From assembly GCA_031260295.1 (NCBI GenBank), contig JAIRKE010000001.1:124001-188000 (forward strand): a stretch of DNA of 64,000 nucleotides. Reading direction: 5' to 3'. Origin of the DNA: Azonexus sp. Lineage in GTDB: Bacteria > Pseudomonadota > Gammaproteobacteria > Burkholderiales > Rhodocyclaceae. The stretch's first letter is position 1. Each line of letters opens with the position of its first letter. The notes below the pieces were generated by a model that searched no databases, was not told where the DNA came from, and saw only the letters and a program-made list of their open reading frames with translations. Of this stretch, positions 6,455 to 23,800 are shown piece by piece. Made by a program: the position numbers and the translations under genes.

Positions 6455-7081
6455 TCAGTCGGCTGGCGGGGCGAGGTCGAGCAGGGCTTGGCGGGCGCGG
6501 GCGAGGAAAGTGGCCTTGTCCTCGCCGCTTTGCCAGGTCAGGGCCGGGCCGAAGGTCAGCGTGCACAGTAGGGGCAGGGGAATCAGCGCGCCCTTGGGCA
6601 TGGCCCGGCCGAGATTCTCGATCCACACCGGGATCAGTTCGACCGCCGGGTTATTCCGGGCCAGGTGGAAAAGTCCGCTCTTGAAGGGCAGCAGGCCATC
6701 GCCCAGATTGCGCGTACCTTCGGGAAAGAGAATCAGCGATTCCCCGGCGGCCAGGGCCGCGCTCATGGCGGCGATGGGATCGACGGCGGGGTTGGCATGG
6801 CCGGCTTGACGGTTGATCAGCACGCCGCGCAGAACCCGGTTGATGAGATAAGTGCGCAGGCCGCCCTTCAGCCAGTAATCAGCCCCGGCCACCGGCCGTG
6901 TCCGTTCCCGGATGCGCTTGGGCAAGGTCGCCCAGATGAGTACGAAATCGCCGTGGCTGCGGTGGTTGGCGTAATAAACGCGCACCCGCTCATCGGGCAG
7001 GCTGCCCAGCCAGCGGGCGCGAACGCCGGTCAGGAGCTTGGCGAAATTACAGATGACGGCGGCGAGGATTTTCTCGATCAA
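6455..7081 (-). CDS. 1-acyl-sn-glycerol-3-phosphate acyltransferase (PlsC family)
   Basis: 208 residues. The acyltransferase HX4D motif is NHRSHGD (H40, D45) and the substrate-binding motif FPEGTR is at 119-124. An N-terminal hydrophobic stretch suggests membrane association. The family transfers acyl chains to lysophosphatidate or related lysolipids. The start codon is TTG at 7081, with GAGG eight bases upstream. It is placed 12 bases after the small membrane protein gene and 13 bases before the CdsA paralogue, so all three are probably cotranscribed. The reaction would supply phosphatidate for the cytidylyltransferase next door. Confidence 0.85.
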   Translation of the reverse strand: MIEKILAAVICNFAKLLTGVRARWLGSLPDERVRVYYANHRSHGDFVLIWATLPKRIRERTRPVAGADYWLKGGLRTYLINRVLRGVLINRQAGHANPAVDPIAAMSAALAAGESLILFPEGTRNLGDGLLPFKSGLFHLARNNPAVELIPVWIENLGRAMPKGALIPLPLLCTLTFGPALTWQSGEDKATFLARARQALLDLAPPAD

Positions 7082-7093
7082 AGGTCAGTCCTC

Positions 7094-7549
7094 TTATTGA
7101 CGGCTGGACAAAATAATCAGCAGCGCGATGAATATCAATGCCTGCCCAAACACCGCGATGATCTGGCGCGCATGCAGATGCCGCGTTGCCGTGACGCGCT
7201 CAAACATGGCGCGGCCTGGCGGCGCATCTTTTTTCAGCAGCGTTTGCAGCGCCCTATCGAAATCGCGCTGCGCCGGCGCGCAGTCCTCTGCGGGCAGCCG
7301 TGCCCAGGCGGCGAAGATGGGCCGGTCAAAAGCGAGTCGCCAGGCATACCAAGCTTGGCTGCACGCCAGCCCGAAACCCAGGCTGAACAGACAGACAAAT
7401 ACCGTATCGCTTAGGAAAGACCAGGCGACAGCGAAGCTGAGCAACAGCAAGGCAAGGCTCAAGGCATGGATTCGGCCGGCGGCCTCGCACAGGGCCAGCC
7501 CGAGCAAAGCCAGGTCGTGGTCGGGCACTGATTCAGCGGGCATGTGCAT
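7094..7549 (-). CDS. Small membrane protein in phospholipid module
   Basis: 151 residues of unknown family. Two hydrophobic helices are grouped near residues 30-65 (LALLLLSFAVAWSFL and VFVCLFSLGFGLAC) and a third at the extreme C-terminus (LIFIALLIILS). A soluble stretch of about 60 residues lies between, probably cytoplasmic or periplasmic and helical. ATG 7549 is chosen over an upstream start at 7609 because AAGGA stands six bases before it. The gene overlaps the end of the PAP2/phosphatase gene by 17 bases. Position inside the module implies a role tied to the same lipid pathway; nothing in the sequence gives an activity. Confidence 0.7.
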   Translation of the reverse strand: MHMPAESVPDHDLALLGLALCEAAGRIHALSLALLLLSFAVAWSFLSDTVFVCLFSLGFGLACSQAWYAWRLAFDRPIFAAWARLPAEDCAPAQRDFDRALQTLLKKDAPPGRAMFERVTATRHLHARQIIAVFGQALIFIALLIILSSRQ

Positions 7550-8930
7550 GGCGTAATCCTTGGCGAAATGCTTCGAGGCAGGCGATGCTTGCCGCGCCCA
7601 GGACGACATGTGGCCGCGCCGACTGGAGCTGCTGGACGGCCTCCTGAACGCTCCTCGTTTGATCCGGCACGGCGCACAGCCAGGCCGCCGCTACGCTGGC
7701 GCTGCGCGATACACCCAGGGCGCAGGCGATCCAGATTGCGCCATCCGGCTGGGCGCGTTGCAGCGCCGCCAAGCGGCGCACGGCGTCTGACAGGCTGGCG
7801 GCCGACACGGGCGTCAGGTCGAGGCAGGGCAGGCCGATGTAGCTTGCCGCCGCAGGCAGGCGGGGGGCGGGCAGTTCGGCGGTCAGATCGAACAGCGCCG
7901 CCTGGCCGCCGCGCTGTTTAGCCCAGGCGGCGAATTCGTTTGCCGTCGGCAGCCGCCCGAGCCAGACGCCATCGCCGATTGAGCTAGGCGCGGGCGCGCG
8001 CCGCGTCCACAGCCGCGAATTGATCCACGCCGCCAGCGTGTAGGGCGCGAACAGCCAGCGCGCCGCCAGCGCATGCCACCCTTCATGTTTCTGAAAGCCT
8101 GCCGCGCCGGCCCAGGCGTAATTGAACGCCACCAGCGCCAGCGCCAGCGCCGGCCAGCACAGCAAGAGGCCGATGCCGCCGAGCGCAGTACCTGATGACA
8201 GCGCGGCGGCGCAGAACAGCGCCGCGCCGAGGAAATAGCGCAGAGCCAGCGCCGGACGCCGCACCTTGGCCTTGCGCAATGGCGATTTGCCTTGCTCTGG
8301 CCAGAGCCAGAGACAGAACAGCCCGACGGCGAATCCCGTCGGCAGGTCGATGAAATGATGCTGCCAGGTGGTGAGCACCGACAGGCCGATCAGCAAGGCC
8401 CAGGCGTGAATCAGCCAGCGCACGGGGCCGGCGGCGACAAACGCGGCGAATTGCCGCCAGATGATGACGAGCAGCGCGATATGCAGCGAGGGGGCTTGGT
8501 TGTAGGGCAGATCGAAATTGGCCAGCGCGGCGAACAGTGCGCCGGAAACCCCCTCGACCGGCGGCCGCACGAAGCTGAAATGCAAAGGCCACAGCAGAAA
8601 GCAGGCGATACAGATGATCTGTGCGCTCAACAGACGCAAGCCAAGGCGGTTGGTTGCCTGCTTGTCGCGGCAGCAGAGAAATGCCAGACCGTAGAGCAGG
8701 TCGATCGACCAGTAGGGAATGATGGTCCACGGCCAGAAGGGAATGCCGCGCTCCCAGGCGAAAACCAGGCTGCCGACGCCGGAGGAGGCAGCCACCTGCG
8801 CCGCGTGCTGGTTGGCGAAGCCGTAGGTGAGAAAGAAAAACGGTCCGAGAAAAATCAGCCAGAGCAGGCCGCGCCCGAAGGCGGCGGGCAGCCAGTGGGT
8901 ATTTTCATCCTCGGCCGTGATCGCGGTCAT
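7533..8930 (-). CDS. ynbD: PAP2-type phosphatase / dual-specificity phosphatase fusion (YnbD-like)
   Basis: About 465 residues from ATG 8930. The N-terminal two-thirds is polytopic and contains a PAP2/inositolphosphotransferase-like core with PSLH (about 147-150) and HHFIDLPTG (about 191-199). The C-terminal domain carries the cysteine-phosphatase loop CALGVSR (C403 to R409, CX5R). This architecture matches E. coli YnbD. Lipid phosphate or phosphoester transfer at the membrane is expected for the first domain; the second could dephosphorylate a lipid headgroup or a protein. The ATG overlaps the stop of the upstream hydrolase/methyltransferase gene as ATGA, which decides the start over 8972. 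Translational coupling is likely. Confidence 0.85.
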   Translation of the reverse strand: MTAITAEDENTHWLPAAFGRGLLWLIFLGPFFFLTYGFANQHAAQVAASSGVGSLVFAWERGIPFWPWTIIPYWSIDLLYGLAFLCCRDKQATNRLGLRLLSAQIICIACFLLWPLHFSFVRPPVEGVSGALFAALANFDLPYNQAPSLHIALLVIIWRQFAAFVAAGPVRWLIHAWALLIGLSVLTTWQHHFIDLPTGFAVGLFCLWLWPEQGKSPLRKAKVRRPALALRYFLGAALFCAAALSSGTALGGIGLLLCWPALALALVAFNYAWAGAAGFQKHEGWHALAARWLFAPYTLAAWINSRLWTRRAPAPSSIGDGVWLGRLPTANEFAAWAKQRGGQAALFDLTAELPAPRLPAAASYIGLPCLDLTPVSAASLSDAVRRLAALQRAQPDGAIWIACALGVSRSASVAAAWLCAVPDQTRSVQEAVQQLQSARPHVVLGAASIACLEAFRQGLRHAHAR

Positions 8931-15352: not shown

Positions 15353-17218
15353 CTACCGGGGTGTGTTGCGATTTGCCTTCCTTGCCAGATCGTCACGCCA
15401 TTGCTTCAAATGTTTCCGGATGGCTTCCGGGGCTTCCATTTGCGGCAGCGAATACCGTTTCTCGGCGGCCGGCTCGCTGTCCTCTTCATCTTTCAATTTG
15501 GCCGATACGGCAGCCTGTTTGGCGTTGTTTTTGTCTTCCCATTCCTTGACCAAGCCGCTTGCCTTGGCGAAAGCGTCTTCAAAGGATTTCGAGGAGGGCA
15601 GGGATTCCTTGAAAAAAGCGCGGCCGAAATAGGTGAAATCGTTTTCGTCGGCACAACCGAACGACGGCCGATCGGCGCGGGCCGCCGTGATCAACAGGGT
15701 TCCCGGATCCTTCAGCGTCTCCATGAAACTGCCGGAATAACAAGCCGAGATCACGACGACTTTCCAGCGAATCCCTGATTCCTTCAGCAACGAAGCCAAT
15801 TCGGCTGCGCTTAGATCGGGGAGTTGCATGCCATTCAGGCCGAGCCTCAAGGTGCCTTCTTTTGAGCCGTGGCTGGTCAGGTAAAGAAACAGAATATCGC
15901 GATCCTTATCCATTTTCGCCGCGATTGCCGAGACAGCCTTGCGAATGCTCGTGACCGTGGCCAATGGAGTGGAACCGGCCGTATTCCGGCTGTTGATCAG
16001 GCTGATGGCGTGATTTCGGGCACCGAACTCTGCTTCGAATTGGGCGCGGACAAAATCGATCTCTCGCCGAAATACCTCCTGTCCGCCATCGCCGGCGATA
16101 CCCAGGAAATACAGGTTGATCGCTTCCCCGGACCTCGGCTCCAGTTTGCCGAGCGCGCGGTCAAGTTGCTCCACCTCGGTATAGAGCGCGCGTTCGACAT
16201 TGGCCTCGTTCCGGCGCGACTCCTCTTCCACTTCTTTCTTCAAACGCCCATATTCCCACCGCCCACTTTTCTGGGTTTCCCCGTCGCTCAGGGGTTTGGC
16301 ATACGTGAGAGTGCCTTGACCCTCGTACATGCCGTAGCTGAATTCGCCCTCGTAAACATCGCCGTTGGCGAAATTAAAAACTCCCTGGCCGTGCGGTACC
16401 CAATTCTGCATCTCTCCCACATATCGGGAGCCATCTGCTTTGCGGGTGGTAGCCTTGCCAACCATTTGGCCGGCCTTGAACTCTCCCTCCCAGGTATTGT
16501 TTTCCGGGTCGGTGTATTTGCCATGTCCCTCGGGCTGCCAATTGCGAAACTCGCCTTCCAGCTTGCCGCCATCGGGATTGGTGATCGCGCCGTGTCCTTG
16601 GAAACTCCCGTCGGCAAATTGGCCCTCATAGGTAGGACCGTTGGGAATCGTATAGCGGCCATCGCCATCAAATTCACCGCGCACGAACTCGCCCACATAG
16701 ACTCGTCCATTTTTCTGGCGTAGTTCCCCTTTTCCCCAGAATTGTCCTTGGCGGAATTCACCCGTGTATTCCTGTACCGATGTTACGAAGTGTCCCTGTC
16801 CGTGATACAGGTTTTTCTGGAATTCTCCTTCGTAAACGTTGCCGTTGTCCTCAAACCGACCATGACCATCCAATAGGCCCGAACGTGCCTGGCCCTGGTA
16901 GAGGCCGCCGCTATTCGTTTTCAGGATCACCGTGCCGGATGGCATTCCTTGTTCGAAATCCCCTTCGATGACATCGCCGGTCGGATAATTGAAACGTCCT
17001 TTGCCCGAAAACAATCCATTTGCGAAGCTGCCAGAGTAGGACGCCCCATTGCTCCATTCGATACGCCCTTCGCCCTGGAGCATTCCTCCAACTACTGGCC
17101 CCCAGTAACGCCCTCCGTCCGGTGTGATGAGAACGGGTGGTTCATCTGCTGCATAAATGCCAAGTGGCATAATGGCAAGGGCGACAATCCAGCTTGTTGC
17201 GATGAGATGCTTGTTCAC
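15353..17218 (-). CDS. MORN-repeat protein with C13-family (legumain-like) cysteine peptidase domain
   Basis: 621 residues. A signal peptide (about 1-23) is followed by about twelve MORN repeats from 36 to 310, each with the Y.G.F..G...G.G pattern. A charged helical linker spans roughly 320-360. The peptidase domain follows, with His in LTSHGSKEG (H450) and Cys in ISACYSG (C493), the dyad of the caspase/legumain clan. Export to the periplasm is likely. MORN arrays usually bind membranes or proteins, so this may be a tethered protease. It is monocistronic. The substrate is unknown; the closest annotated name would be C13 family peptidase. Confidence 0.85.
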   Translation of the reverse strand: MNKHLIATSWIVALAIMPLGIYAADEPPVLITPDGGRYWGPVVGGMLQGEGRIEWSNGASYSGSFANGLFSGKGRFNYPTGDVIEGDFEQGMPSGTVILKTNSGGLYQGQARSGLLDGHGRFEDNGNVYEGEFQKNLYHGQGHFVTSVQEYTGEFRQGQFWGKGELRQKNGRVYVGEFVRGEFDGDGRYTIPNGPTYEGQFADGSFQGHGAITNPDGGKLEGEFRNWQPEGHGKYTDPENNTWEGEFKAGQMVGKATTRKADGSRYVGEMQNWVPHGQGVFNFANGDVYEGEFSYGMYEGQGTLTYAKPLSDGETQKSGRWEYGRLKKEVEEESRRNEANVERALYTEVEQLDRALGKLEPRSGEAINLYFLGIAGDGGQEVFRREIDFVRAQFEAEFGARNHAISLINSRNTAGSTPLATVTSIRKAVSAIAAKMDKDRDILFLYLTSHGSKEGTLRLGLNGMQLPDLSAAELASLLKESGIRWKVVVISACYSGSFMETLKDPGTLLITAARADRPSFGCADENDFTYFGRAFFKESLPSSKSFEDAFAKASGLVKEWEDKNNAKQAAVSAKLKDEEDSEPAAEKRYSLPQMEAPEAIRKHLKQWRDDLARKANRNTPR

Positions 17219-17378: not shown

Positions 17379-18710
17379 ATGTCTTTTGACCGAACGATTC
17401 AAGGATTCTTGGCCATTTCGTCCAGTTTTTTGTTTGCCGTCAGCACCGACGCCGCCATTGCCGCTCCATCGGGCAAGGCCGTCGCCCGGCCGGCGAACGT
17501 CGAATCCATCGTCCTCGGCATGGGCTGTTTCTGGGGCGCGGAAAAGCGCATGGCGGCGATTCCCGGCGTGCTCGACGTCGAAAGCGGCTACGCCAACGGC
17601 GAGGTGCCAGGCACCTATGAGGCTGTGCTGGCGCATGAGCGGCTGGTACAGCAGGGCAAGACCACGCTACGCAATCACGCCGAGGTGATCAAGGTCAGCT
17701 TCGATCCGGACAAGGTCGATCTCGAACAGGTGCTGATCCAGTTCTGGGAAAACCACGATCCGACCCAGGGCAACCGCCAGGGCAACGACATCGGGAGCAA
17801 TTACCGCAGCGCCATCTATACCAGTAGCGACGCCCAATTGGCCATCGCCCACAAGACGCGGGATGTGTACCAGGGTGCCTTGTCGGCCCAGAAGCACGAT
17901 CGGATCACCACCGAGATTGTCCCCTTGAAGACCTATTTCCGGGCCGAGGAATACCACCAGGATTACCTGGCGAAGAACCCGGATGGCTATTGCGGCCTGG
18001 GCGGCACCGGCATCAAGTATCCGCTGGCCGCCACGGCTGCCAGCAGTTCGCCGGCGGCGGCGAAAGCGCCACGGTTGGATGGCAAGGCGCTCGATTTCCA
18101 GCGCCAACTGGTCGTGTTCGAGGCCGAGGACTGTGCCTATTGCAAGAAATTCAAGGCCGAGGTGCTCGACCGCTGGCAGTCGCCGGTGGCCGTGGCCCGT
18201 ACCCTGAGTACGGAGTCCCCTTCAGGTTGGGTGCTGGAAAAAACCTTGTTCGCGACACCAACCATCGTGCTGTTCGAGAAGGGCAGGGAAGTCTCCCGCT
18301 ACACCGGCTACAACGGCGAGACGGTTCGTTTCTGGAAATGGTTGGGTTTCCATCTGTTAACGTCGGCGCAGCAGAAAATCGCCTTCGAGCAGGGCACCGA
18401 ATATCCGGGAACTGGCTCGCATCTCGACGAAAAGCGCCCCGGCACCTTCGTCGATCCGATCACCGGCGCGCCGCTGTTCCGTAGCAACGCCAAGTTCGAC
18501 AGCGGTACCGGCTGGCCCAGCTTCTTCAATCCGCTGCCCGGCGCGTTGACGCTGCATGAAGACGACAGCCACGGCATGCGCCGCGTCGAAGTGCGCAGCG
18601 CCAGTTCCGGCATCCACCTCGGCCACGTTTTCGACGACGGCCCGCCGCCGACCGGCAAGCGCTATTGCATCAACGGCAATGTGCTGAAGTTCGTGCCGGA
18701 TAAAGATTGA
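17379..18710 (+). CDS. msrAB: Peptide-methionine sulfoxide reductase: MsrA-thioredoxin-MsrB fusion
   Basis: 443 residues with an N-terminal signal peptide (about 1-29), so probably periplasmic. MsrA (about 42-215) has the catalytic GCFWG (C50), the EYHQDYL segment and a resolving GYCG (C205). A thioredoxin-like middle part (about 240-325) has CAYC (C252, C255). MsrB (about 330-443) has GTGWPSF, GIHLGHVF and the catalytic RYCIN (C430), and lacks the zinc-site CXXC pairs. It reduces S- and R-methionine sulfoxide in exported proteins. In Neisseria PilB the thioredoxin domain comes first; here it is in the middle, so each reductase can be recycled by the same internal domain. A hairpin terminator follows. 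Confidence 0.9.
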   Translation: MSFDRTIQGFLAISSSFLFAVSTDAAIAAPSGKAVARPANVESIVLGMGCFWGAEKRMAAIPGVLDVESGYANGEVPGTYEAVLAHERLVQQGKTTLRNHAEVIKVSFDPDKVDLEQVLIQFWENHDPTQGNRQGNDIGSNYRSAIYTSSDAQLAIAHKTRDVYQGALSAQKHDRITTEIVPLKTYFRAEEYHQDYLAKNPDGYCGLGGTGIKYPLAATAASSSPAAAKAPRLDGKALDFQRQLVVFEAEDCAYCKKFKAEVLDRWQSPVAVARTLSTESPSGWVLEKTLFATPTIVLFEKGREVSRYTGYNGETVRFWKWLGFHLLTSAQQKIAFEQGTEYPGTGSHLDEKRPGTFVDPITGAPLFRSNAKFDSGTGWPSFFNPLPGALTLHEDDSHGMRRVEVRSASSGIHLGHVFDDGPPPTGKRYCINGNVLKFVPDKD

Positions 18711-18755
18711 TGCTTTTGGCGATCTGACGGCAACAGGGCAGGGTGGTGGCTCTGC

Positions 18756-18780
18756 TTTGTGGTGTCGCGCCACAAATTAT
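18756..18780 (+). terminator. Hairpin downstream of msrAB
   Basis: A perfect 7-bp stem TTTGTGG (18756-18762) and CCACAAA (18770-18776) with a 7-nt loop, followed by a weak T-containing tail. It sits 46 bases after the msrAB stop. A moderate terminator is likely; it also marks the junction with the cassette tract. Confidence 0.5.
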
Positions 18781-18802
18781 CTTAAACGAGGCTATTTGGA
18801 CT

Positions 18803-18864
18803 GCCTAACGCCTAAGCTAACCGGCTGCCGCGTAGCGGCGCAGTCCGGGATGCGATAGTTAGAC
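18803..18864 (-). other. attC recombination site of an integron-type gene cassette
   Basis: Read on the minus strand this 62-bp site starts GTCTAAC (R'', fits RYYYAAC) and ends GTTAGGC (R', fits GTTRRRY). Between them are inner arms CCGGACTGC and GCAGCCGG, complementary apart from one extrahelical A, and a central GCCGC-TAC-GCGGC hairpin. A bulged base in one inner arm is the standard attC feature. The TAA stop of the adjacent minus-strand gene lies inside R'', as is usual for cassettes. The folded bottom strand is what IntI recombines. No integrase gene is visible in the window. Confidence 0.8.
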
Positions 18865-19359
18865 ATCGGGGCATAGCCAGTCGATGACCTTTAGGCGAAA
18901 GCGCTCAAGCTCATTCAGGGCTTCCGAGAGACGGCGAAAATCTTCAGCGAATGACTCGGGGAGCAATTCTTCTTCCTCTTCTTCTCGTGCCCCCTTTGAT
19001 GCTCGAAGCCGTGAATTTTCACGCAGCAGTCCAGAGCGTCCTTCAACGCTGATCCACGATGCATATTTTGAGTGCACCATTTCATTCCGCCGTTCACCCA
19101 GCTTCCAGAGTTCATTCATGAGCTTGTGAAATTCTGCTTTGGCCGTGTAATCAGGATTGCAGAGCAGATCGACAAACCGCGCGAACAGAACGTCCGTCGT
19201 CTTGACACGCTGGGAATACTGAAGTTCGTTGACCAAGATGCGAACGGCTTCATCGTCAGCCTTTGCCATGAGCACAAGGAGCCTAGTGAGCGCAGTCTCG
19301 ACGTGCTGGAATGTGACGATGAAGCGGCCAAGCTCTTGGTGGGAAGCAGATGCGTTCAT
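18859..19359 (-). CDS. Cassette-encoded HEPN-like protein
   Basis: 166 residues, predicted mostly helical. The segment RRNEMVHSKY contains R91-x4-H96, the RX4-6H motif of HEPN ribonuclease or nucleotide-binding domains, in the expected position after two helices. A run of six acidic residues lies near 125-130. The stop codon falls inside the attC R'' box, and the ATG (19359) lies a few bases inside the cassette after GTTAGGC at 19373-19367. HEPN proteins are common as toxins or defence RNases, but many are unassigned, and no antitoxin partner is visible in this cassette. A non-catalytic HEPN-fold protein is the main alternative. Confidence 0.65.
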   Translation of the reverse strand: MNASASHQELGRFIVTFQHVETALTRLLVLMAKADDEAVRILVNELQYSQRVKTTDVLFARFVDLLCNPDYTAKAEFHKLMNELWKLGERRNEMVHSKYASWISVEGRSGLLRENSRLRASKGAREEEEEELLPESFAEDFRRLSEALNELERFRLKVIDWLCPDV

Positions 19360-19562
19360 GTGAGAGGCCTAACTATATTTGGACGATTGTTTAAGGGATT
19401 CTGTTGTTGCACGAAATAGAAAAAACCCAAAGTATCGGCGATTGTTGCACCAACTAGCCCTACACGATTTTCGCCGCCGACAAGGTACGCTACTACACTG
19501 GCAACGAATCCGAGTAGCAGACCGAGCCACCAATAATTTTTGAAAATTAAGTGCCGAGTCAT
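19356..19562 (-). CDS. Small cassette membrane protein
   Basis: 68 residues from ATG 19562, beginning MTRHLIFKNYWW. It has two hydrophobic helices (LGLLLGFVASVVAYLVGG and VGATIADTLGFFYFV) and a polar C-terminus. The last codons run through the cassette boundary GTTAGGC and overlap the start of the HEPN-like gene by four bases (ATGA). The longer frame to 19820 overlaps the lipoprotein gene and is rejected. No family is recognised. It may share a cassette with the lipoprotein gene 31 bases upstream. Confidence 0.5.
   Translation of the reverse strand: MTRHLIFKNYWWLGLLLGFVASVVAYLVGGENRVGLVGATIADTLGFFYFVQQQNPLNNRPNIVRPLT
19367..19397 (-). repeat. Cassette boundary sequence, attC-like R' box
   Basis: The minus strand reads CCTTAAACAATCGTCC then AAATATA and GTTAGGC. 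It shares the CCTT..AACA.TCGTC.AA...TAGTTAGGC pattern with 20096-20126 and the same R' box as the attC at 18803. No R'' box or inner arms could be found upstream, so this is either a degenerate or very short site. Confidence 0.5.
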
Positions 19563-19593
19563 TGTCTGTGGTGAGTTGTATGGATAGGCATTG

Positions 19594-20082
19594 TCAATAG
19601 CATGACGTCGTGACAATGCTTCCAATGACTGTAGATGTGCAATTGGTAGAGCGTTTAGCAGCCGCCGCCCGCTCCTCTTGTGCGGCAGCTTGCCGTCGCT
19701 GCGCAGTTGCCTGCTCTTGCATAGCTCTTGTGCGTTCAAGTTCAAGAGAAAAACGCACGTCTGTCTCTCGTCCGAGAACTCCATCGGGTCGATTGAACGT
19801 GAATTGCTGTGAAAGCCCATACCTTGCGAAGTCTGCTCTCAGCGACGTTATTCCCGCTGTCGCGCCACTCGCCCACTGAACTCTGGTGCCAGCGATATCC
19901 ATGAATCCGCGCTTCTTGTCCTCTTTGGAAACGTCGTAATAGAGCGTATATGGGGTGTATCCGATTCGTTGCCCTCCCTGGTAAAGGACGGCACCTGGAG
20001 GATCGGAATTGTAGGTGACGCTCAACTGCGAAGCGCAGCCAGAGAAGAGCAGAGCTGCGATAACGGAAAGAATGCGGATCAT
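19594..20082 (-). CDS. Putative lipoprotein with PEGA-like N-terminal segment
   Basis: 162 residues. A type II signal peptide with lipobox LLFSGC (Cys16) is followed by a stretch SVTYNSDPPGAVLYQGGQRIGYTPY, which resembles a PEGA-domain beta module. A helical Gln/Ala/Glu-rich region and a C-terminal pair of cysteines (NCTSTV...TTSCY) complete the protein. It should be anchored to a membrane on the periplasmic side. It begins 14 bases inside the boundary GTTAGGC at 20102-20096, as cassette genes do. The function is unknown. Confidence 0.65.
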   Translation of the reverse strand: MIRILSVIAALLFSGCASQLSVTYNSDPPGAVLYQGGQRIGYTPYTLYYDVSKEDKKRGFMDIAGTRVQWASGATAGITSLRADFARYGLSQQFTFNRPDGVLGRETDVRFSLELERTRAMQEQATAQRRQAAAQEERAAAAKRSTNCTSTVIGSIVTTSCY

Positions 20083-20095
20083 ATTGCGCTCCTAT

Positions 20096-20126
20096 GCCTA
20101 ACTACAATTAGACGACTGTTCCAAGG
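20096..20126 (-). repeat. Second cassette boundary sequence, attC-like
   Basis: The minus strand ends in GTTAGGC and is preceded by GTCTAAT four bases away, so on the plus strand it reads GCCTAAC-TACAA-TTAGAC, a short inverted pair of R-type boxes. It is clearly related to 19367-19397. The distances between the three boxes at 18803, 19367 and 20096 are 564 and 729 bp, normal sizes for cassettes. Confidence 0.5.
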
Positions 20127-20180
20127 AAAGTTGGCGCAGGCTTGGCTGCGAACTCATGCCGACCATCAGATGCCTCTTTG

Positions 20181-20236
20181 ATGTCACTTATAGCAGCCAA
20201 AATTTACTATGAAACAACGGAAATGTCACTTATAGC
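20181..20236 (+). promoter_or_regulatory. Direct repeats upstream of Xre regulator
   Basis: ATGTCACTTATAGC occurs twice, at 20181-20194 and 20223-20236, exactly 42 bp apart (four helical turns). Shorter CTCATAGAG repeats follow near 20259-20281. The repeats lie just before a helix-turn-helix gene, so they are candidate operators for it. Confidence 0.4.
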
Positions 20237-20307
20237 GCGTGCTGTTATCGCGCGTGGCCTCATAGAGGGGGCACTCATAGAGTTGCTGCTCTTTGAGAAG
20301 GAAAGAC

Positions 20308-20562
20308 ATGTCCCTCGACCCGCGAAAACGCTTTGGCCTGAAACTGGTAGAGATCAGGCGAACCAAGGGTTGGTCGCAGGAGCGGTTGGCGCTGGAGAGC
20401 GGTTTGGCGCGCAGTTATCTTGGTGAGGTTGAGCGCGGGCAGCGCAATATTGCGCTGCTGAACATCTTCAAACTGGCGGAAGCCTTGGAGGTGGAGCCTT
20501 CCGTGCTCATGGAGCCGCCCGTGCATAGACGGGAACCGGCACCGCAGCCTGCGGTGTTGTGA
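20308..20562 (+). CDS. Xre-family transcriptional regulator
   Basis: 84 residues consisting essentially of one HTH_3 domain: FGLKLVEIRRTKGWSQERLA, then LARSYLGEVERGQRNIALLNI, matching the five-helix lambda-repressor fold with the recognition helix around SGLARSYLGEVERG. The short tail is Pro-rich. ATG 20308 follows GAAGGAAA at good distance, preferred to 20293. It is a small DNA-binding protein of the controller/antitoxin type and probably autoregulates through the repeats upstream. It is next to the cassette tract and may be part of the mobile region. No restriction enzyme or toxin partner lies beside it. Confidence 0.85.
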   Translation: MSLDPRKRFGLKLVEIRRTKGWSQERLALESGLARSYLGEVERGQRNIALLNIFKLAEALEVEPSVLMEPPVHRREPAPQPAVL

Positions 20563-20883
20563 GTCACTCCGGGCTGAAGCCCGGAGCTTCCTCGCCACGA
20601 GTTTGGGGTGCCTTTGGCACCGAAATCACGCTTTGCTCGCTTGACCCCGGCCTGAAGGCCGGGGCTTGCACTTGCGCCGTGGTGATGGCAAACGCAGGGC
20701 AGTGAGGCTGCTCTGGCGCTCGATGGGTATCAACGCATCTCATGAAATGGGGCGCTGGATTGTGGGGGCATCCCTTGTGGTCGCCCTTTGCCGGAGTGGA
20801 TTGCTCGTTCGTCGAAACCACGGTCAAAGCTGCCCCTGCGCTCGGGTACAATGTCGGCCTTCCCGCCTTACCCGAGTTCCTCC
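20563..20883. repeat. Intergenic region with three hairpins before purL
   Basis: Two perfect 8-bp hairpins share a TGAA loop: CTCCGGGC/GCCCGGAG at 20567-20586 and CCCCGGCC/GGCCGGGG at 20645-20664. A third hairpin, GGTGCC/GGCACC with a TTT loop, is at 20607-20621. They resemble REP-type or IS200/IS605-end palindromes. A TACAAT -10-like hexamer at 20847-20852 lies 32 bases before the purL ATG, without a good -35. No gene is seen. Confidence 0.5.
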
Positions 20884-23800
20884 ATGGCCGACATTCTTTG
20901 CCTCAAGGGCGACACCGCCTTTTCCGCCTTCCGTTTGCAACGCCTGCGCGCCCGCCTGGTCGCGGTCGTGGCGGACATCGAATCGGTGGTGGCCGATTAC
21001 TGGCACGTGGTGGCGCCCAAGCGCGCCCTGAGCGCCGATGAGCGGGCCAAGCTGGCGCAATTGCTGGAGGAGCGGCCGGCGGGCGAGGAGAGGGGAGAAC
21101 TGTTCCTGGTCGCGCCGCGCATCGGTACCATTTCGCCGTGGTCGTCGAAGGCCACCGACATTGCTTTCAACTGTGACCTGGAGCCGGCCCTTGAGCGCAT
21201 CGAGCGCGTCGTCGCTTTCCATGTCGTGCTCAGGAACGGCCGAGCGCTGACGGCCGCCGAGAAAAAAACAGTTGCCAGCCTGTTGCATGATCGCATGACC
21301 GAGTCGGTGCTGGCGGATTTCGCCGAGGCTGGCGAACTGTTCCGCCATTTCGCGCCGAAGCCGCTGGCGACCGTTGACGTGCTGGCCGGCGGCAAGGCGG
21401 CGTTGGTCGGGGCCAACACCGCGCTGGGCCTGGCGTTGTCCGAGGACGAGATCGACTATCTGCTCGATATCTTCACCAAGGCCGGCCGCAACCCGACCGA
21501 TGTCGAACTGATGATGTTCGCTCAGGCCAATTCCGAACACTGCCGGCACAAGATTTTCAATGCCTCGTGGGTAATCGACGGCGAGCAGAAGGACAAGACG
21601 CTGTTCGGCATGATCCGCGAGACGCACCAGGCACACCCGCAGGGCACGGTGATGGCTTATGCCGACAATGCCTCGATTATCGAGGGGGCGACGATCCAGC
21701 GCTTCTACCCAGACGCCGACCAGGGCTATTCCTACAAGGAAGAACTGACCCACATCCTGACCAAGGTCGAGACGCACAACCATCCGACGGCGATTTCGCC
21801 CTTTCCCGGCGCCGCGACCGGCAGCGGCGGCGAAATCCGCGACGAGGGCGCCACCGGCAAGGGCTCCAAGCCCAAGGCCGGCCTGTGCGGCTTCTCGGTT
21901 TCCAACTTGAACATCCCCGATGCAGTGCAACCGTGGGAAAAAACCTACGGCCGGCCGTCGCGCATCGCCTCGGCGCTCGACATCATGATCGAAGGCCCGA
22001 TCGGCGCTGCCGCTTTCAACAATGAATTCGGCCGGCCCAATCTGACCGGCTATTTCCGCACCTACGAACAGGACGTGAACGGCACCGTGCGCGGCTATCA
22101 CAAGCCAATCATGATTGCCGGCGGCCTGGGCAGTATCCAGGCCGGTCAGTCGTTCAAGGAAGAGACTTTCCCGGTCGGCACGTTGTTCGTGCAACTGGGC
22201 GGTCCCGGCATGCTGATCGGCCTGGGCGGCGGTGCCGCCTCGTCGATGACTGCCGGCGTCAATGCCGAAGATCTCGACTTTGCCTCGGTGCAGCGTGGCA
22301 ACCCGGAAATCCAGCGCCGTGCCCAGGAAGTCATCGACCGCTGCTGGCAGATGGGGGCCAACAACCCGATCCTGTCGGTCCACGACGTCGGCGCCGGCGG
22401 CGTTTCCAACGCGCTGCCGGAACTGGCCCACTCGGGCAGCGTTGGCGCCAGGTTCGAACTGCGTGCAGTACCGATCCTCGAACCGGGCATGTCGCCAGCC
22501 GAAATCTGGTCGAACGAAGCGCAGGAACGTTACGTGCTGGCCCTTCCGCCCGGCCGCATCGGCAAATTCCAGGCGCTGTGCGAGCGCGAGCGTTGCCCGT
22601 TTGCGGTGGTCGGCGAAGCCACCGGGGACGGCCACCTGACCGTTACCGACCGCCACTTCAATGTCAATCCGGTGGACATGGAGATGGAGGCGCTGCTCGG
22701 TAAGCCGCCGCGCATGACCCGCGATGTGACCTCGCGGCCGTCCAGCTTCGTGCCTTTCGACGCCGTATCGGTTGAACTGAAGGACGCCGCTTACCGCCTG
22801 ATGCGCCTACCAGCCATCGCCGACAAGACTTTCCTGATCTCCATCGGCGACCGCTCGGTCGGCGGCATGACCGCCCGCGACCAGATGGTCGGCCCGTGGC
22901 AGGTGCCGGTGGCCGACGTGGCCGTGACCACGATGAGTTACCAGGGCTATCGCGGCGAAGCCTTCGCCATGGGCGAGCGCACGCCGCTTGCCGTGCTCGA
23001 CGCGCCGGCCTCCGGCCGCATGGCCATCGGCGAGGCGCTGACCAACTTGGCCGCCGCCGACGTCGGCGATCTCGGTAAAGTCAAGCTCTCGGCCAACTGG
23101 ATGGCGGCGTGCGGCGTACCGGGCGAGGATGCCCGCCTGTACGCCACCGTCGAGGGCATTTCCAAGTTGTGCCAGCAAATCGGCGTCTCGATTCCGGTCG
23201 GCAAGGATTCGCTGTCGATGCGTACCGCCTGGGAAGAGGTGACAGAAGCGGGCGGCGAGCAGAAGCAGGTGGTGTCGCCGCTGTCGCTGATCGTCACGTC
23301 CTTCGCCGCCGTCGACGACGTGCGCCGGACGCGGACACCGCTGTTGGTGACCGGCCAGGGTGAAAGTGAAATTCTGCTGCTCGACCTCGGCCAGAATCGC
23401 CTCGGCGGCTCGGCACTGGCCCAGGTTTACAACGCCACCGGCAGCGAGGCGCCGGATGTGGACGATCCGGCGCGGTTGAAGGGCCTGTTCGACGCGGTGC
23501 AGAAGCTCAACCGTGACGGCTTGCTGCTGGCCTACCATGACCGCTCCGATGGTGGCCTGTTTGTGGCCGCGGCCGAGATGGCCTTCGCCAGCCGCCGCGG
23601 CGTCACGCTCGATCTCGATGGCCTGTGCTACGACCCGTTAGCCGGCGACATCGACGGGTCCGAAAAACGCCCCGACCTGATGGCCGGCCGCGATTTCGAG
23701 AACTGCGTGCGGGCACTGTTCAACGAGGAACTCGGTGCCCTGATCCAGATTCGCCGCGTCGACCGCGAAAAGGTGACTTCGGTATTGCGTGCCCTGCGCG

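What the first reader, a model, noticed from the sequence alone, without database searches (positions are those of the whole stretch)
18803..20126. Integron-type cassette tract (attC plus related boundaries) with no integrase in view
Seen: a 62-bp minus-strand site with R'' GTCTAAC, R' GTTAGGC, complementary inner arms with one bulged base, and a central hairpin. The TAA stop of the adjacent gene lies inside R''. Two further GTTAGGC boundaries occur 564 and 729 bp away, each followed within about 20 bases by a start codon, and the two share a 30-bp pattern. Known: these are attC and cassette features. Inferred: this is a cluster of attC sites lacking an integrase (CALIN) or the edge of a chromosomal integron. 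The two degenerate boundaries lack inner arms and may represent worn or unusual attC forms.
Basis: partly seen in the sequence, partly recalled or inferred. Interest (0 to 1): 0.8.

Follow-up and report, generated by a model that had tools for sequence, protein, structure and literature searches.

The report
Integron cassettes with attI-type boundaries
A short run of accessory genes in a bacterial chromosome is bounded by one normal gene-cassette site and two fragments that match the integron's own capture site (attI), which suggests that remnants of a gene-capture platform become scattered along with the genes it moves.

Summary
The attC at 18803-18864(-) is real: a covariance model of eight other clade attCs, window site excluded, finds it at 39.1 bits, E=1.3e-9. 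The genome is not integrase-less: a complete intI lies on another contig. The two 'degenerate boundaries' are not worn attCs. Both match the L-spacer-R core of this clade's attI and are the two best such matches in the window (34.6 and 24.4 of 35.3 bits; next 13.1). Site 3 is identical over 22 nt to an attI in a congener. Neither has an R'' box within 150 nt, a detectable outer attI half or a detectable intI relic beside it. Order: attI core - two small genes - attI core - one gene - attC. The first cassette thus has an attI core where attC should be, like the 'Delta-attI-type' cassettes described from class 1 and 2 integrons (PMC12901181). Other attI relics in this genome, some with intI stubs, form an apparent decay series. 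I read the tract as a relic of eroded integron platform(s) with a Delta-attI-type cassette: a variant of a known kind. Activity and exact history are untested.

The parts
18803..18864 (-). attC site (R'' GTCTAAC, R' GTTAGGC) ending cassette B
   Evidence: covariance model R1 without this site: 39.1 bits, E=1.3e-9; 6 of 7 R''/R' Watson-Crick matches
18859..19359 (-). cassette B gene, 166 aa, no family match; stop codon inside R''
   Evidence: found in 1 of 76 genus genomes (own)
19367..19387 (-). site 2: diverged attI core (L-spacer-R), ATCGTCCAAATATAGTTAGGC
   Evidence: 24.4 bits, second best of all positions in the window with the 21-nt profile; 85% over 20 nt to two congener attIs; no R'' within 150 nt
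19356..19562 (-). cassette A second gene, 68 aa, membrane-like by eye; reads through site 2 and overlaps the cassette B start codon (ATGA)
19594..20082 (-). cassette A first gene, 162 aa, lipoprotein-like by eye, weak PEGA match below cut-off
   Evidence: PEGA E=0.061; found in 1 of 76 genus genomes (own)
20096..20116 (-). site 3: attI core GTCGTCTAATTGTAGTTAGGC, outer boundary of the tract
   Evidence: 34.6 of 35.3 bits; identical over 22 nt to the attI of G013:C86, 95% over 20 nt to the genome's own attI at C60

Best explanation
The tract is the remnant of an integron insertion between msrAB and purL. Reading on the minus strand it is: attI core (20116-20096), cassette A (a 162-aa and a 68-aa gene, no attC), attI core (19387-19367), cassette B (166-aa gene), attC (18864-18803). 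The two cores keep the L and R boxes that an integron integrase is known to bind (crossover after the G of GTTAGGC, established for this family), but no outer half of attI and no intI is detectable. Cassette A is therefore a Delta-attI-type cassette, with an attI remnant in place of attC. The most likely history is insertion of one or more integron platforms at this locus and loss of intI by stepwise deletion from the integrase side; relics at other stages are scattered over the genome. Shown: the anatomy, the likeness of the sites to attI, intI elsewhere in the genome, the scattered relics. Inferred: the order of events, the platform origin, and that the C60 integrase can act on these sites in trans.
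For: attC confirmed by a model that leaves it out. Sites 2 and 3 are the two best attI-core matches among all window positions on both strands. Site 3 is identical over 22 nt to attI at G013:C86 and 95% over 20 nt to the own attI next to intI, the latter independent of how the attI set was chosen. No R'' within 150 nt of sites 2 or 3, one at the true attC. Complete intI at C60:255-1199, E=1e-139. Apparent decay series in the own genome: complete intI (C60); attI plus intI leader and the start of intI (C5, C53); attI core plus leader up to the intI start (C69); a core by eye with an intI N-terminal relic (C28); outer attI half without leader (C71, C17); core only (window, twice). Congener G013 has one complete intI and further attI copies with stubs or leader. 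Around the attI-like sites, 26 of 26 attC matches lie on the cassette side and the same strand, in 18 of 29 loci, the window attC counted twice. Delta-attI-type cassettes are recorded in class 1 and 2 integrons, and those tested were excised by IntI1 (parts of PMC12901181).
Against: No empty site or close strain is held, so the insertion is not seen directly. Nothing of intI, its leader or the outer attI half is detectable left of site 3. Site 2 is diverged: without its R box it scores 13.3 bits against 12.9 for the best background position, so it leans on standing next to GTTAGGC. The reversed control patterns matched relatives more often than the real ones: 18 against 9 over 41 genomes at 2 mismatches and 74 against 26 over 76 genomes at 3 mismatches, both my sums of the tables; pattern hits in other genomes therefore count only with independent support. 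In the own genome it was 0 against 5, 0 against 4 and, at 3 mismatches of the first pattern, 9 against 7. Promoter-like sites in the tract are at chance level (1 found, 1.1 expected), so how the genes are expressed is unexplained.
Confidence: 0.72

Rival explanations
1. The two boundaries are attC sites that lost their inner arms and central hairpin.
For: They end in GTTAGGC like this clade's attCs, and a start codon follows closely.
Against: No RYYYAAC box within 150 nt upstream of either; the attC model gives no match there at E up to 10; the 14 nt before GTTAGGC match attI, exactly so at site 3.
Confidence: 0.04
2. The cassettes were inserted by IntI at pre-existing genomic target sites (attG) that happen to resemble the attI core, with no platform ever present.
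For: Only the core matches; no outer half, leader or intI is detectable. Insertion of cassettes at attG sites is described (passages of PMC12444791 and PMC12901181).
Against: Identity over 22 nt at site 3 is more than a chance target would be expected to show (inference). At the comparable leuA locus of G073 (core 8 nt after the leuA stop, then cassette and attC) none of 29 other genomes read has the core within 300 nt after leuA; their best match is 10 of 15 nt, so there it seems to have come with the cassette. Two such sites 729 bp apart are hard to get this way.
Confidence: 0.12
3. Two complete integron platforms were inserted one after the other at the same place, and both lost intI and the outer attI half, so no Delta-attI-type cassette was ever mobile here.
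For: Eroded platforms are present in this genome and in G013.
Against: Needs the same truncation to the core twice, once inside an array; the 68-aa gene runs straight through site 2, and no intI or leader match was found on its intI side.
Confidence: 0.12

Closest known systems
[quoted passage not shown] Gonzales Machuca 2026, PMC12901181)
   Same: A cassette whose 3' boundary is a fragment of attI instead of attC; an attI-orf-attI arrangement is also recorded there.
   Different: Here chromosomal, in a genus with Azonexus-labelled members, with genes of unknown function, with both L and R boxes kept (about 21 nt) at both ends of cassette A, and without intI at the locus.
CALIN (cluster of attC sites lacking an integron integrase; IntegronFinder, PMC9024848, passages read)
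   Same: Cassette DNA with attC and no adjacent intI; here in the middle of a 321-kb contig, so not a contig-edge artefact.
   Different: Only one attC; the other boundaries match attI, which the paper says IntegronFinder does not detect outside class 1.
Xanthomonas chromosomal integrons with inactivated or deleted intI (PMC12444791, passages read)
   Same: Loss of intI with cassettes left behind; CALINs away from intI.
   Different: There intI sits downstream of ilvD with few exceptions; here the DNA after intI differs in each of 11 genomes compared, the own one and 10 relatives.

Membership tests
attC site (18803-18864) | R'' RYYYAAC and R' GTTRRRY, complementary | tested here: met
   GTCTAAC/GTTAGGC, 6 of 7 Watson-Crick matches
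attC site (18803-18864) | Fits the sequence-structure profile of clade attCs | tested here: met
   39.1 bits, E=1.3e-9, full length 1-57; five pairs marked non-standard
attC site (18803-18864) | Bottom-strand folding and recombination by IntI | not testable with these tools
   DNA fold energy not better than shuffles (z -0.47); activity needs an assay
attC site (boundaries at 19367 and 20096) | An R'' box upstream of R' | tested here: not met
   none within 150 nt at either
attI (sites 2 and 3) | L and R boxes at clade spacing | tested here: met
   24.4 and 34.6 of 35.3 bits
attI (sites 2 and 3) | Outer half of attI | tested here: not met
   site 2 and site 3: left-block P=0.07 and 0.45; extension P=0.065 and 0.156
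attI (sites 2 and 3) | Adjacent intI | tested here: not met
   no tblastn match within about 1.4 kb on the intI side; complete intI is on contig C60
Delta-attI-type gene cassette (cassette A) | Cassette without attC, ending in a partial attI | tested here: met
   site 2 at its 3' end; no attC match between 18864 and 20096 at E up to 10 with a clade-specific model
Delta-attI-type gene cassette (cassette A) | Excised or inserted by an integron integrase | not testable with these tools
   needs a recombination assay
CALIN | At least two attC sites without intI (IntegronFinder 2 default) | tested here: not met
   one attC; the paper notes that single-attC cases can be real
attG insertion | Left boundary native in relatives without the cassette | tested here: inconclusive
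   no empty msrAB-purL site found; at the comparable leuA site 0 of 29 other genomes carry it

The most novel reading that the evidence does not exclude
In this lineage the attI core itself travels. Cassettes ending in an attI L-R core (rather than attC) are mobilised in trans by the one intact integrase, through double-strand recombination, and are deposited beside core genes, while whole intI-attI platforms also relocate between chromosomal loci and then erode. The genome-wide pattern would be a dispersed integron that spreads its own capture sites.
Probability: 0.15. Interest if true: 0.72.

Novelty: new variant of a known kind. Interest (0 to 1): 0.42.

Why it matters
IntegronFinder looks for intI and attC and does not detect attI outside class 1 (passage of PMC9024848). 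Here attI cores mark cassette boundaries and probable old platform sites that such a scan would miss, and relics in the same genome show intI loss at several stages. They make the Delta-attI-type cassette, which the paper I read reports from class 1 and 2 integrons, a candidate feature of chromosomal integrons. A platform followed by different DNA in each of 11 genomes compared raises the testable question of how platforms move.

Tried and rejected
Worn attC: rejected. Rfam search of 17800-21200: two sub-threshold matches (CRISPR-DR29 27.4 bits against gathering 39; L2 leader 21 against 37.8), taken as chance. Cassette gene functions: no Pfam, NCBIfam or PADLOC match for the 166-aa protein, no plasmid match, no confirmed viral-contig relative, no PDB sequence match, and a structure model too poor to use (mean pLDDT 47.7). 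Its RNEMVH stretch recalls the HEPN Rx4H motif from memory only; not claimed. The 162-aa protein has one plasmid relative, 31.9% identity over 69%, hypothetical, and a SufA match far below cut-off. Empty-site comparison at msrAB-purL: purL matched in 32 of 40 genomes; I fetched 20 upstream stretches, some short; msrAB was there in 2, with unrelated gap contents, so uninformative. Gapped extension of sites 2 and 3 into the outer attI half: not significant. Alignment A2 contained a wrong stretch for L041 and was dropped in favour of A3.

Limits: the A3 set includes attIs found with a pattern drawn partly from the window sites; the outer half, leader and intI stubs of those attIs, and the direct BLAST of site 3 against the intI-adjacent C60 attI, do not depend on that choice. 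The whole-genome attC search scored only 150 candidates per genome, so its counts may be low. Six of its 25 matches in the own genome and one of 24 in G013 were in the model's own training set.

Full report
The finding. This is in the sequence. The boxes start at 18803, 19367 and 20096, that is 564 and 729 bp apart.

The attC. I built a covariance model from eight attC sites: six from the window's own genome, one from congener G013 and one from locus L090, with the window site left out. It finds 18803-18864(-) end to end at 39.1 bits, E=1.3e-9 in the window, where the next match has 14 bits, and E=5.9e-8 across the genome. At E up to 0.1 the model gives 25 matches in this genome, six of them training sites, and 24 in G013, one of them a training site, over many contigs; only 150 candidates per genome were scored, so these counts may be low. 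Plain folding energy does not single the site out (z -0.47).

Integrase. The genome has a complete integron integrase on contig C60 (TIGR02249, 465 bits, E=1e-139), with its attI next to it. The tract lacks intI locally, not genomically. It lies in the middle of a 321-kb contig, so it is not an array cut by a contig end.

The two other boundaries. I aligned ten attIs, window sites excluded: six beside complete intI (C60, G013:C143 and named records L083, L085, L086, L098) and four beside a truncated intI or its leader (C5, C53, G013:C86, G013:C172). Scored with this profile, the L-spacer-R part (21 nt) has its two best matches in the window at 20096-20116 (34.6 of 35.3 bits) and 19367-19387 (24.4); the next has 13.1. 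Site 3 is identical over 22 nt to the attI at G013:C86, over 21 nt to that at G013:C172, and 95% over 20 nt to the own attI at C60. Site 2 is more diverged (85% over 20 nt). Without the R box site 3 still stands out (23.5 bits) and site 2 hardly does (13.3 against 12.9). Among 35 GTTAGGC boxes in the stretches examined, sites 3 and 2 rank first and third for the 14 nt before the box; the C5 attI is second. The outer half of attI is not detected at site 3 (P=0.45) or site 2 (P=0.07), nor by gapped extension (P=0.156 and 0.065). No R'' box lies within 150 nt upstream of either. They match attI cores, not worn attCs.

Anatomy. On the minus strand: core site 3; a 162-aa gene; a 68-aa gene that reads through core site 2 and whose stop overlaps the next start (ATGA); a 166-aa gene whose TAA lies in R''; attC. 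The model finds no attC between site 3 and the final attC; it is clade-specific, so another attC type could escape it. The tract has 52% GC against 62% for the window. The 166-aa and 162-aa proteins are each found in 1 of 76 genus genomes, this one.

Other relics. In the own genome attI-like sites occur with a complete intI (C60), with the intI leader and the start of intI (C5, C53), with the leader up to the start codon (C69), as a core by eye with an intI N-terminal relic (C28), with the outer attI half but no leader (C71, C17), and as core only (window, twice). C53 has GTTCAC in place of the R box. At 3 mismatches the pattern alone gave 7 sites against 9 for its reversed control in this genome; C17 and C53 rest on the outer half and leader, not on the pattern. 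G013 has a complete intI plus attI copies with stubs or leader at C86, C172, C90, C94 and C31, partly judged by eye, and a core-only site at C178. Beside these relics lie alaS, priA, a phosphomannomutase gene, hemB and a squalene/phytoene synthase gene with a tRNA-Leu. Around the attI-like sites, 26 of 26 attC matches lie on the cassette side and same strand, in 18 of 29 loci, the window attC counted twice. Of the sites listed, only the window's two lie in one tract.

Controls against me. Reversed patterns matched more often than the real ones over the relatives: 18 against 9 in 41 genomes and 74 against 26 in 76 genomes, both my sums. Pattern hits outside the own genome therefore count only with outer half, leader, intI or attC beside them. 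In the own genome these two searches gave 0 control matches against 5 and 4 real ones.

Do the cores arrive with cassettes? At G073:C15 a core stands 8 nt after the leuA stop, followed by a cassette and attC. None of the other 29 leuA loci read has it within 300 nt after the stop; their best ungapped match is 8 to 10 of 15 nt (30 loci read of 69 genomes with a match). So there the core seems to have come with the insertion, against a native attG target. Intergenic DNA changes fast, so this is support, not proof.

Platform position. In 11 genomes compared (the own one and 10 of its IntI relatives), different DNA follows the intI stop codon; the flanks of up to 1500 nt share no BLAST match with one another at E 1e-3, while the intI genes are 80-89% identical over their last 800 nt in 55 pairs. 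Neighbours include genes for a threonyl-type tRNA synthetase, tgt, DAHP synthase, an endonuclease III-type protein and an enoyl-CoA hydratase. In Xanthomonas, by contrast, intI sits downstream of ilvD with few exceptions (passages of PMC12444791).

Known kind. Of PMC12901181 I read the abstract, most of the introduction, the results section on identification and the first part of the discussion. It describes gene cassettes whose attC is replaced by an attI fragment (96 in 1,685 class 1 and 14 in 57 class 2 integrons), names Partridge 2009 as an earlier source, and reports excision of the tested ones by IntI1 and insertion into attI1 like canonical cassettes. It also recalls that canonical cassettes with a Delta-attI upstream were not excisable, which could apply to cassette B here. 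My searches for chromosomal cases or multiple attI sites (listings, with passages of two more papers) showed none, but they cover only open-licence papers.

How it works, most likely. Inferred: an integron platform with cassettes entered the msrAB-purL interval; the intI side was lost down to the attI core; cassette A carries an attI core in place of attC. The C60 integrase could in principle bind L and R at sites 2 and 3 and recombine them with the attC hairpin, or cores with each other; this is untested. Expression is open: promoter-like matches are at chance level.

Organism. The best IntI relatives are metagenome bins labelled Azoarcus, Azonexus, Burkholderiaceae, Betaproteobacteria and others. 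G013's intI contig has the same length (10,029 bp) as a record labelled Azonexus sp. isolate Pmx449_bin29, so a Rhodocyclales relative is likely (inference).

Noticed in passing
window 20293-20562(+), repeats at 20181-20194 and 20223-20236: A small HTH gene resembling restriction-modification controller proteins (PADLOC Control_protein E=2e-22) with two identical 14-nt repeats ATGTCACTTATAGC upstream, which recall C-box operators from memory; its neighbours are purL and the cassettes, and it sits divergent to the cassettes where intI would stand.
   Followed up: partly
11 loci with intI (L005, L083-L091, L098): The intI stop codon is followed by different DNA in each of these genomes, the own one and 10 relatives, as if the platform relocates.
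   Followed up: partly
L031 (G013:C178) 1380-1990: A core attI-like site plus a small membrane-like gene lies between two copies of about 65 bp of a uvrD-like 3' end (by eye), the far copy slightly diverged, as if an insertion had duplicated or brought a gene end.
   Followed up: no
window 15353-17218(-): A 621-aa protein with MORN repeats and a Peptidase_C13-type domain.
   Followed up: no
window 17379-18710(+): A fused MsrA - thioredoxin-like - MsrB protein; the interval between it and purL has unrelated contents in the two relatives compared.
   Followed up: partly
L020 (G000:C69) 7014-7790: A toxin-antitoxin-like gene pair (by eye) ends right before an intI leader and attI core, a possible second attI-ended cassette.
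   Followed up: no
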